NCBI RefSeq assembly: GCF_020923495.1
Contig: NZ_CP064048.1
Location: forward strand, 1,676,501 to 1,740,500
DNA from: Brevibacillus sedimenti
Lineage (GTDB): Bacteria; Bacillota; Bacilli; Brevibacillales; Brevibacillaceae
DNA: 64,000 nucleotides
Direction of reading: 5' to 3'
In this document: in pieces, positions 25,879 through 27,729 of the stretch
Layout: every line of letters starts with the position of its first letter
Position numbering within the stretch: the stretch's first letter is position 1
Made by a program: the position numbers and the translations under genes
The notes under the pieces: model-generated
Databases searched by the model: none
Told to the model about the DNA's origin: nothing
What the model saw: the letters and a program-made list of their open reading frames with translations, nothing else

Positions 25879-25908
25879 GCATCCCGAGGGAGTTTTTCCT
25901 CGGGATGC
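25879..25908. terminator. hairpin between hutU and hutI
   Basis: GCATCCCGAGG (25879-25889) pairs perfectly with CCTCGGGATGC (25898-25908). The loop holds five T but no T run follows. It ends 3-4 bases before the hutI ribosome binding site and could act as a partial terminator, RNA-stability element or 3'-end block. Confidence 0.6.
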
Positions 25909-25928
25909 TTCCATGGAGGAGAGAAAGC

Positions 25929-27215
25929 GTGAAGCCGGAACGGATTGATCTGTTGGTACACAACATCGGTGTGCTGGTGACGATGGGCGGCAAGCATGGG
26001 CCGCGACGGGGAGTCGAGATGTCGGATGTCGGGCTCGTGACGGGCGGAGCTGTGGCGATTGCGGATGGCAAAATCGTGGCCGCCGGTGCGGAAGCGGACG
26101 TCCGGGCGGAAATCGCCGGGCTGCCCATCGAGCAGAGCCTGGATGCAAATGGGCGTCTGGTGACGCCGGGCCTGGTGGACCCGCACACCCATCTGGTGCA
26201 TGGAGGTTCCCGGGAAAACGAACTGGTGTTGAAACTAAAGGGCATGTCGTATCTGGACATCCTCGCCCAGGGCGGCGGGATTCTCAGCACGGTGCGGGCT
26301 ACACGGGCTGCGACGGAAGACGAACTGTACGAAAAGGCACGGAAGAGTCTGGATATCATGATGCTGTACGGGGCGACGACTGTAGAGGCAAAAAGCGGCT
26401 ACGGACTGACGCTGGCAGACGAGCTGAAGCAGCTTCGTGTGACCAGGCGGCTGGATGAAACGCATCCGATCGACCTGGTGTCGACGTTTATGGGGGCACA
26501 CGCCGTACCGGCGGAGTACAAGGGCCGCTCCGCCGAATACGTCAAGCTGGTGATCGAGGAGATGCTGCCGGAGGTAATGCGGCAGGGACTGGCCGAGTTT
26601 TGCGACGTTTTTTGCGAGCACGGGGTGTTTTCGGTGGACGAGTCGCGGGCGATTCTCGCCGCCGCAAAAGAGCTGGGGTTCGGGTTGAAGCTGCATGCCG
26701 ACGAGATTGAACCGCTCGGCGGGGCGCAGCTGGCCGCAGAGATGGGCTGCATTTCCGCAGAGCATCTGCTGGCCGCTACCGATGAAGGATTGAAGGCGAT
26801 GCGGGATGCGGGCGTGATCGCCGTCTGCCTGCCGGCAACGTCATTCAACCTGCGCGCCAAGTCCCACGCTCGGGCCCGAACCATGATCGAGCTGGGAGTG
26901 CCGGTTGCGCTGTCCACTGACTACAATCCGGGCAGTTCGCCCACGGAATCGCTGCAGCTGGTGATGACCCTGGCATGCCTGAATCTGAACATGTCACCGG
27001 AGGAAGTATTTACTGCCATGACGATCAACGCAGCCTATGCGATTGGCCGCGGAGACCAGGTGGGCAGTCTTGAGCCCGGAAAGCTGGCGGACCTGGTGCT
27101 GTTCAACGCCGAAAACCTGGCGTATGTGCCGTATCACTTCGGCATCAACCACGTGGACACGGTGATCAAGAAAGGGCGCGTCGTGGTGGCCGGAGGACGG
27201 CTTTTGGAGAAGTAA
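25929..27215 (+). CDS. hutI: imidazolonepropionase
   Basis: 428-residue amidohydrolase that opens imidazolone-5-propionate to N-formimidoyl-L-glutamate. The metal-binding HxH is in VDPHTHLVHGGSRENE (about residues 78-93), with further ligands in LKLHADEIEP and STDYNPGSSPTES. KGMSYLDILAQGGGILSTV is a HutI hallmark. GTG 25929 is chosen because GGAGGAGAG lies just upstream; the frame opens at 25905. The terminator of the operon, with the inserted repeat copy B, follows directly. hutH is absent here. Confidence 0.95.
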   Translation: MKPERIDLLVHNIGVLVTMGGKHGPRRGVEMSDVGLVTGGAVAIADGKIVAAGAEADVRAEIAGLPIEQSLDANGRLVTPGLVDPHTHLVHGGSRENELVLKLKGMSYLDILAQGGGILSTVRATRAATEDELYEKARKSLDIMMLYGATTVEAKSGYGLTLADELKQLRVTRRLDETHPIDLVSTFMGAHAVPAEYKGRSAEYVKLVIEEMLPEVMRQGLAEFCDVFCEHGVFSVDESRAILAAAKELGFGLKLHADEIEPLGGAQLAAEMGCISAEHLLAATDEGLKAMRDAGVIAVCLPATSFNLRAKSHARARTMIELGVPVALSTDYNPGSSPTESLQLVMTLACLNLNMSPEEVFTAMTINAAYAIGRGDQVGSLEPGKLADLVLFNAENLAYVPYHFGINHVDTVIKKGRVVVAGGRLLEK

Positions 27216-27229
27216 AAGCAGATGAAACA

Positions 27230-27630
27230 AGGCACGGAAACAGTTGCTCCGTGCCTCAGCGTGTAGACAAAGTCCGTGGCGCATGGATGATCGGGCCCGC
27301 TCGCTCGCTTGACGCCCATCATAGAAGATGGATGATGTCCGCTCCAAAACGCGACGCGGGCAGGGGACAAACATCTGGGTGTTTCGACGAAGTGAGACTT
27401 GTGTCCCCTGTTTTTCCCCGCGTCTTTCGTTTTTCCGCTGAGCCGGTCGTCAAAGGAGCTCGCTTGGCCCATCACTCCATGCGATGTACTTTTTCTCCAT
27501 CTTCGGTTGATGAATGTGCAGGCCTTTCGGCCTGACAACGATGGACAGATCGTTTCCTTGCGGAACTTCAATGAAAAAGTACAGTTTGTCTTCAGTCTGA
27601 GGCACGGAAACAGTTGCTCCGTGCCTTTTT
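27230..27630. repeat. terminator-flanked structured repeat, copy B
   Basis: The element is 27257-27599, starting CAGCGTGTAGACAAAGT and ending GTTTGTCTTCAGTCTG. It lies between two identical 27-bp terminator stems at 27230-27256 and 27600-27626, arms AGGCACGGA/TCCGTGCCT; only the right stem has a T run. Its interior is unrelated to copies A, C and D but is also rich in inverted repeats: GCGGG..AGGGGACA with TGTCCCCT..CCCGC, and GTACTTTTTC/GAAAAAGTAC. No convincing coding frame is present. The stem ends the hut operon. Confidence 0.85.
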
Positions 27631-27710: not shown

Positions 27711-27729
27711 GATAATGATTCTCATTATT
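27711..27729. promoter_or_regulatory. Fur box upstream of the siderophore regulator
   Basis: GATAATGATTCTCATTATT is a close match to the classic Fur consensus and lies 26 bp before the btr-like start codon. Predicts iron-dependent repression of the regulator. Confidence 0.85.

What the first reader, a model, noticed from the sequence alone, without database searches (positions are those of the whole stretch)
27230..27630. Structured repeat flanked by a perfect 27-bp duplication of the hut terminator
The hutI terminator stem occurs twice, base for base, at 27230-27256 and 27600-27626, with a 343-bp non-coding element between. The element begins right after the first stem and ends right before the second; only the second keeps the T run. 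A target duplication made of a whole terminator hairpin is not typical of common IS or MITE families. It suggests a mobile element that recognises or copies terminator hairpins.
Basis: seen in the sequence. Interest (0 to 1): 0.85.

Follow-up and report, generated by a model that had tools for sequence, protein, structure and literature searches.

The report
Mobile element that duplicates terminator hairpins
A short gene-less mobile DNA element, present in about fifty copies in this bacterium, lands on the hairpins that end transcription and duplicates the whole hairpin as it inserts, so that a hairpin with its stop signal remains beyond it.

Summary
The 343 bp at 27257-27599 is a non-autonomous element (MITE) with ends CAGCGTGTAGACAAA.../...TTTGTCTTCAGTCTG. 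Capped searches found it at about 50 places in the genome. Of 44 copies examined, 32 have a flush flanking repeat (control 0 of 220); in 26 of these 32 the repeat is one hairpin from end to end (19-38 bp), and all 26 differ in sequence. In a sister species, four orthologous sites lack the element and carry one hairpin. Full-length IS1182-family elements in other genera share the terminal 15-22 bp and also stand between duplicated hairpins. In a capped scan, 56 of 71 usable IS1182 loci show this, in 32 of 35 genomes. IS1272, of the same family, replaces the hairpin instead (PMC5678879). The likely mechanism is transposase attack at both 5' feet of an extruded cruciform, so that hairpin size sets the duplication length. 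This is inferred; PMC5678879 drew it as an alternative pathway. Only a broken IS1182 transposase was found in the window's genome. Verdict: new variant of a known kind.

The parts
25905..27215 (+). hutI (imidazolonepropionase) gene whose intrinsic terminator was the target
27230..27256 (+). first copy of the duplicated terminator stem-loop (no T run after it)
27257..27599 (+). 343-bp non-autonomous IS1182-type element (MITE)
   Evidence: about 50 places in the genome; ends shared with full-length IS1182 elements
27257..27271 (+). left terminal inverted repeat CAGCGTGTAGACAAA
   Evidence: first 15-22 bp match the left ends of IS1182 elements L126, L129 and L136
27585..27599 (-). right terminal inverted repeat (reverse complement CAGACTGAAGACAAA)
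   Evidence: last 17 bp match the right ends of L129 (88%) and of the transposase relic L076 (94%)
27361..27415 (+). internal hairpin followed by five T, terminator-like; the hairpin is conserved among copies, the T run varies
   Evidence: arms; alignment; not flagged by the scan
27600..27626 (+). second copy of the duplicated terminator stem-loop
27627..27631 (+). T run of the original terminator, now after the second stem

Best explanation
The element is a MITE moved in trans by an IS1182-family DDE transposase. The transposase recognises a terminator hairpin by its shape, probably as a cruciform extruded from double-stranded DNA, and joins the two 3' ends of the element to the 5' foot of each of the two stem-loops. 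Repair of the resulting long stagger copies the entire stem-loop, so each side of the element ends up with one hairpin. The length of the duplication (about 18-42 bp) follows the hairpin rather than a fixed reach of the enzyme. The upstream gene keeps a hairpin with its T run beyond the element, so termination is probably spared. SHOWN: dispersal, target type, whole-hairpin duplication, empty sites, ends shared with IS1182 elements. INFERRED: mobilisation in trans, the cruciform, attack at the 5' feet, spared termination.
For: 32 of 44 copies have a flush repeat (score at least 15, within 0-1 nt of the element end), 35 of 44 at 11 or more; 0 of 220 cross-copy controls reach 15, maximum 8. In 26 of the 32 a stem of at least 6 bp reaches within 3 nt of both repeat ends, with 26 different sequences; 63 of 320 random windows of the same lengths do so. 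Four empty sites carry one hairpin. Two copies identical at 326 of 327 bp sit in different hairpins. IS1182 transposases L129 and L126 score 492 and 375 bits against a cut-off of 270. The ends of L126, L129 and L136 match those of the element over 15-22 bp. Long hairpin repeats flank 8 of 14 loci in G050, 3 of 4 in G044 and 4 of 4 fetched in G014 and G019. Capped scan: 57 of 71 usable loci (35 genomes) have a repeat of 15 bp or more, 56 of them an end-to-end hairpin, against 64 of 570 random windows. Repeat ends lie 0-4 nt outside the G:C-bounded hairpin core on both sides at 47 of 56 IS and 22 of 24 MITE sites, against 0.515 and 0.671 when lengths are swapped between sites. An A or T run lies beside the repeat at 51 of 56 IS and 17 of 24 MITE sites.
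Against: 12 of 44 copies fall short of score 15 and 9 show no clear flush repeat; two of the 9 (L002, L016) have partial hairpin-like repeats. 6 of the 32 repeats are not one hairpin from end to end; three of these run into a neighbouring element. Perfect pairing of at least 5 bp from the very ends holds at only 43 of 56 IS and 12 of 24 MITE sites. Repeat and hairpin lengths correlate only moderately (Pearson 0.44 IS, 0.46 MITE), and a first definition of the core put its ends outside the repeat at about half of IS and most MITE sites. IS-site repeats begin with A (51 of 56) and end with T (50 of 56), so a sequence preference at the foot is possible. The end matches to full-length ISs are short (E 0.001 to 0.65). 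No intact IS1182 transposase was found in the window's genome. No transposition was observed.
Confidence: 0.85

Rival explanations
1. The transposase has a long but sequence-guided reach: it binds the A-tract and T-tract that flank terminators on linear duplex DNA, and the hairpin between is duplicated incidentally.
For: At IS sites repeats start with A in 51 of 56 and end with T in 50 of 56, and 51 of 56 have an A or T run beside the repeat. Length correlation with the hairpin is only moderate.
Against: Hairpin repeats range from 18 to 42 bp, which a fixed protein arrangement on linear DNA would not give; repeat ends track the hairpin core better than swapped lengths do; 7 of 24 MITE sites lack such a run.
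Confidence: 0.15
2. The element inserts by replacing the hairpin, as IS1272 does, and the two hairpins are something else, such as hairpins carried by the element or an older tandem terminator.
For: IS1272, of the same family, replaces hairpins (PMC5678879, PMC4923244, passages read). IS1182 loci of G008 (3 copies) and G011 (2 copies) and two plasmid loci show no long repeat.
Against: The hairpin differs in sequence from site to site, so the element does not carry it; four empty sites have exactly one hairpin.
Confidence: 0.03
3. The structure is a conserved regulatory or structural RNA downstream of hutI, not a mobile element.
For: Strong predicted fold, z -5.9.
Against: About 50 dispersed places in different terminators; 1 of 81 pairs compensatory; no Rfam match at gathering score; absent at the hutI orthologue of G022.
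Confidence: 0.01

Closest known systems
IS1182 family of insertion sequences (NF033551), Bacillota branch with ends CAG..TGTAGACAAA
   Same: Terminal 15-22 bp, insertion into hairpins, whole-hairpin repeats
   Different: The element has no transposase, and no interior match to L076, L126, L129 or L136 beyond weak short ones was found
IS1272 / TnSha1 (IS1182 family, Staphylococcus; PMC5678879 and PMC4923244, passages read)
   Same: Targets terminator or other hairpins without common primary sequence
   Different: IS1272 removes or truncates the hairpin and makes no target duplication; here the hairpin is duplicated. PMC5678879 Fig. 13 pathway b (legend and passage read) draws whole stem-loop duplication as an alternative
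MITEPye1 (IS1182-type MITE of Paracoccus yeei; PMC11578231, passages read)
   Same: Short non-coding element with IS1182-like ends, intergenic
   Different: 4-bp direct repeats and 1-3 copies per chromosome, against hairpin-long repeats and about 50 places here
ISPse1 (IS1182 family, Paracoccus seriniphilus; PMC3281130, passages read)
   Same: Same family by name
   Different: Listed with a 4-bp repeat, so hairpin duplication is not a rule for the whole IS1182 family

Membership tests
IS1182-type MITE | Terminal inverted repeats shared with an autonomous IS1182-family element | tested here: met
   (short matches, 15-22 bp); transposase identity
IS1182-type MITE | No transposase gene, short, many similar copies | tested here: met
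IS1182-type MITE | Target-site duplication at insertion | tested here: met
IS1182-type MITE | Intact cognate transposase in the same genome (usual, not required) | tested here: not met
   Only a broken relic at G000:C1:1369145-1369677 was found
IS1182-type MITE | Moves when the transposase is supplied in trans | not testable with these tools
   Needs a transposition assay
IS1272-type hairpin replacement | Target hairpin removed, no target duplication | tested here: not met
MITEPye1-type element | 4-bp direct repeats | tested here: not met
   End-to-end hairpin repeats here are 19-38 bp

The most novel reading that the evidence does not exclude
A widespread branch of IS1182 transposases in Bacillota reads the shape of DNA: it attacks both 5' feet of an extruded terminator cruciform, so that the target duplication is measured by the hairpin and not by the protein. 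Intrinsic terminators would then be reusable and largely harmless landing sites, while the IS1272 branch uses the opposite polarity and destroys the site.
Probability: 0.55. Interest if true: 0.72.

Novelty: new variant of a known kind. Interest (0 to 1): 0.56.

Why it matters
It gives a natural case of target-site duplication whose length is set by a DNA structure rather than by the transposase. A pathway that PMC5678879 drew as an alternative is supported here by long repeats at 103 loci (32 MITE copies, 15 IS loci, 56 IS loci; not all independent, since several come from one genome). It suggests how an element can spread through gene 3' ends without obviously breaking termination, and it warns annotators that doubled terminators around a short spacer can mark IS1182-type insertions.

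Tried and rejected
Rejected: a known structured RNA (no Rfam match at gathering score; almost no covariation); spread by plasmids (no match in the plasmid collection); a hairpin belonging to the element (it differs from site to site).

Weak, dropped or leading nowhere: the hutI orthologue in G022 is not a clean empty site because only the upstream flank aligns. At L055 both flanks matched G022 but about 1.9 kb apart, so it was not counted. A first definition of the hairpin core put the core ends outside the repeat at about half of IS and most MITE sites (Pearson 0.44 and 0.42); it was replaced by a stricter one, and both are told. In one search, 9 of 80 loci were left out for short flanks or runs of N. 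In one search one IS locus (L216) was skipped and 80 of 87 sites were kept (7 MITE sites had no flush repeat under that rule). The G009 copies gave no usable ends. The tree separates 32 hairpin-duplicating from 4 non-duplicating transposases, but the loci were chosen by similarity to the query and long branches meet, so it does not prove one origin. In G053, 3 of 10 fetched copies have a flush repeat of score 15 or more; three more score 11-14, one of them 4 nt off the element end. A first G053 script with a strict end pattern matched one locus only.

Literature: Siguier et al. 2015, cited by others for palindrome targeting by IS1182, is not held, nor is the 2014 review asked for. That ISfinder lists long repeats for this family is recalled, not checked. 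In the ten paper searches I saw listings, and passages of six papers; none of what I saw reports whole-hairpin duplication by IS1182 elements other than as the drawn alternative in PMC5678879.

Full report
Observation. The two 27-bp stems and the 343 bp between them are exactly as described; chance does not explain them. Only the second stem has the T run. The first stem folds as a 9-bp hairpin at -15.5 kcal/mol. The simple terminator scan flagged only stem 1, on the minus strand, which is no more than shuffles give.

Copies in the genome. A search of the window's own genome (one contig, 3.93 Mb) with the element and its stems gave 43 matches. A search with a 327-bp subfamily copy gave 43, seven of them at places not in the first list (near 940.8, 1289.4, 1521.7, 1609.1, 1903.5, 2033.1 and 3292.5 kb). 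One more copy lies in locus L021. That makes about 51 places, some partial. The tool scored 40 of 114 and 40 of 113 candidates, so this is a lower bound. Decayed copies with one recognisable end and shorter copies also exist (a 170-bp one in L068). Two copies identical at 326 of 327 bp lie in different hairpins, which points to recent movement.

Targets. For 44 distinct copies I measured the repeat that ends flush with the element. 32 of 44 score 15 or more and 35 of 44 score 11 or more; of 220 pairings of one copy's left flank with another copy's right side none reaches 15 (maximum 8). In 26 of the 32 the repeat is a hairpin from end to end, 19-38 bp long, and the 26 sequences all differ; 63 of 320 random windows of equal length meet the same rule. 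The other six also contain a stem that stops short of one end; three of them run into a neighbouring element. Tandem copies share hairpins (L053, L011). Nine copies have no clear flush repeat; two of these keep partial hairpin-like repeats.

Empty sites. Sister genome G022 matches the hutI 3' end at 92%. I compared the flanks of the 44 copies with 600 kb of G022, parts of contigs C6 and C7. At four sites both flanks matched next to each other (copies near 715, 811, 1743 and 1770 kb); all four lack the element and carry one hairpin. At hutI, G022 has no element and a degenerate single stem before a T run, but the downstream side does not align.

Source of movement. Searches for IS1182-type transposase models found only a broken gene in the window's genome. 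A matching broken gene lies in G022, and both have a right end like that of the element. In G050, of another genus in the same family, IS1182 elements of about 1.55 kb have ends CAGCCTGTAGACAAAG and CAGATTGCAGACAAAC and stand between duplicated hairpins. Transposases from G050 and G044 are IS1182 by NCBIfam (492 and 375 bits, cut-off 270) and carry DUF772 and DDE domains. Of 48 loci examined, 15 have a long hairpin repeat: 8 of 14 in G050, 3 of 4 in G044, and 4 of 4 fetched in G014 and G019. The last two groups have somewhat different ends (CAGGCTGTCGAGAAAG) and were assigned by Pfam PF13751 only. The other 33 loci include other IS1182 subgroups, more distant proteins and relics. The element matches the ISs only over its terminal 15-22 bp (individually weak, E 0.001 to 0.65), so it is not a simple internal deletion of one of the ISs compared.

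Generality. Of these, 71 from 35 genomes had usable flanks. 57 of 71 have a repeat of at least 15 bp, and in 56 a hairpin reaches within 3 nt of both repeat ends, against 64 of 570 random windows; 1 of 213 cross-locus pairs reached 15 bp. The 56 lie in 32 of the 35 genomes (my count from the tables). Their lengths run from 18 to 42 bp. Of the 14 loci with shorter repeats, 13 still show a hairpin next to at least one end when read by eye. Hosts include Bacillus, Enterococcus, Exiguobacterium, Oscillibacter and Lysinibacillus. Other IS1182 loci, with ends such as GGGGCTGTCC or GAGGGTGTCC (G008, G011, two plasmid loci), show no long repeat, in line with the replacement mode reported for IS1272 (PMC5678879, PMC4923244, passages read). 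ISPse1 of the same family is listed with a 4-bp repeat (PMC3281130, passages read). Hairpin duplication is thus a habit of one branch, not of the whole family.

Mechanism. A fixed stagger would not give duplications of 18 to 42 bp. The repeat ends sit 0-4 nt outside the G:C-bounded hairpin core on both sides at 47 of 56 IS and 22 of 24 MITE sites, against 0.515 and 0.671 when lengths are exchanged between sites. The length correlation is moderate (Pearson 0.44 and 0.46), and an earlier core definition did not show the coincidence. In a cruciform the two 5' feet lie together whatever the stem length, so joining there gives a stagger as long as the hairpin. PMC5678879 drew this as pathway b beside the replacement pathway it proposed for IS1272. 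The A...T preference at the repeat ends leaves room for a sequence contribution. That termination is spared follows from the position of the T run and is not tested.

Novelty. IS1182 elements are known to target palindromes (as said in PMC4923244 and PMC5678879), and an IS1182-type MITE with 4-bp repeats is published (PMC11578231, passages read). PMC12056078 (passages read) says that IS1182-related transposases act with or without duplication and may recognise a DNA structure. What I saw in ten searches of the held library reports no whole-hairpin duplication beyond that drawn alternative, but the key review is not held. I therefore call it a new variant of a known kind.

Noticed in passing
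27711-27729: A Fur-box-like palindrome (gataatgattctcattatt) stands upstream of an AraC-type regulator gene and genes that look like a catechol siderophore cluster (recalled motif and gene names, not tested).
   Followed up: no
L053 (G000:C1:656315-657346) and L011 (G000:C1:891135-891832): Tandem arrays of three and two elements in which neighbours share the hairpin between them.
   Followed up: partly
L076 (G000:C1:1369145-1369677) and G022:C11:11013-11539: Broken IS1182 transposase found in both species; in L076 an IS21-like transposase gene (Mu-transpos_C_2 and rve domains) lies beside it.
   Followed up: partly
L119/L130 and L135/L137 (G050): Pairs of IS1182 copies a few kb apart that carry each other's hairpins, as if recombination had exchanged or removed the DNA between them.
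   Followed up: no
L138 (G050): An IS1182 element with a 23-bp hairpin repeat but 2.76 kb long, about 1.2 kb more than its relatives.
   Followed up: no
L139-L156 (G053): A related element, about 80-83% identical over some 200-240 bp, in at least 18 copies in another genus of the family; some have flush hairpin repeats.
   Followed up: partly
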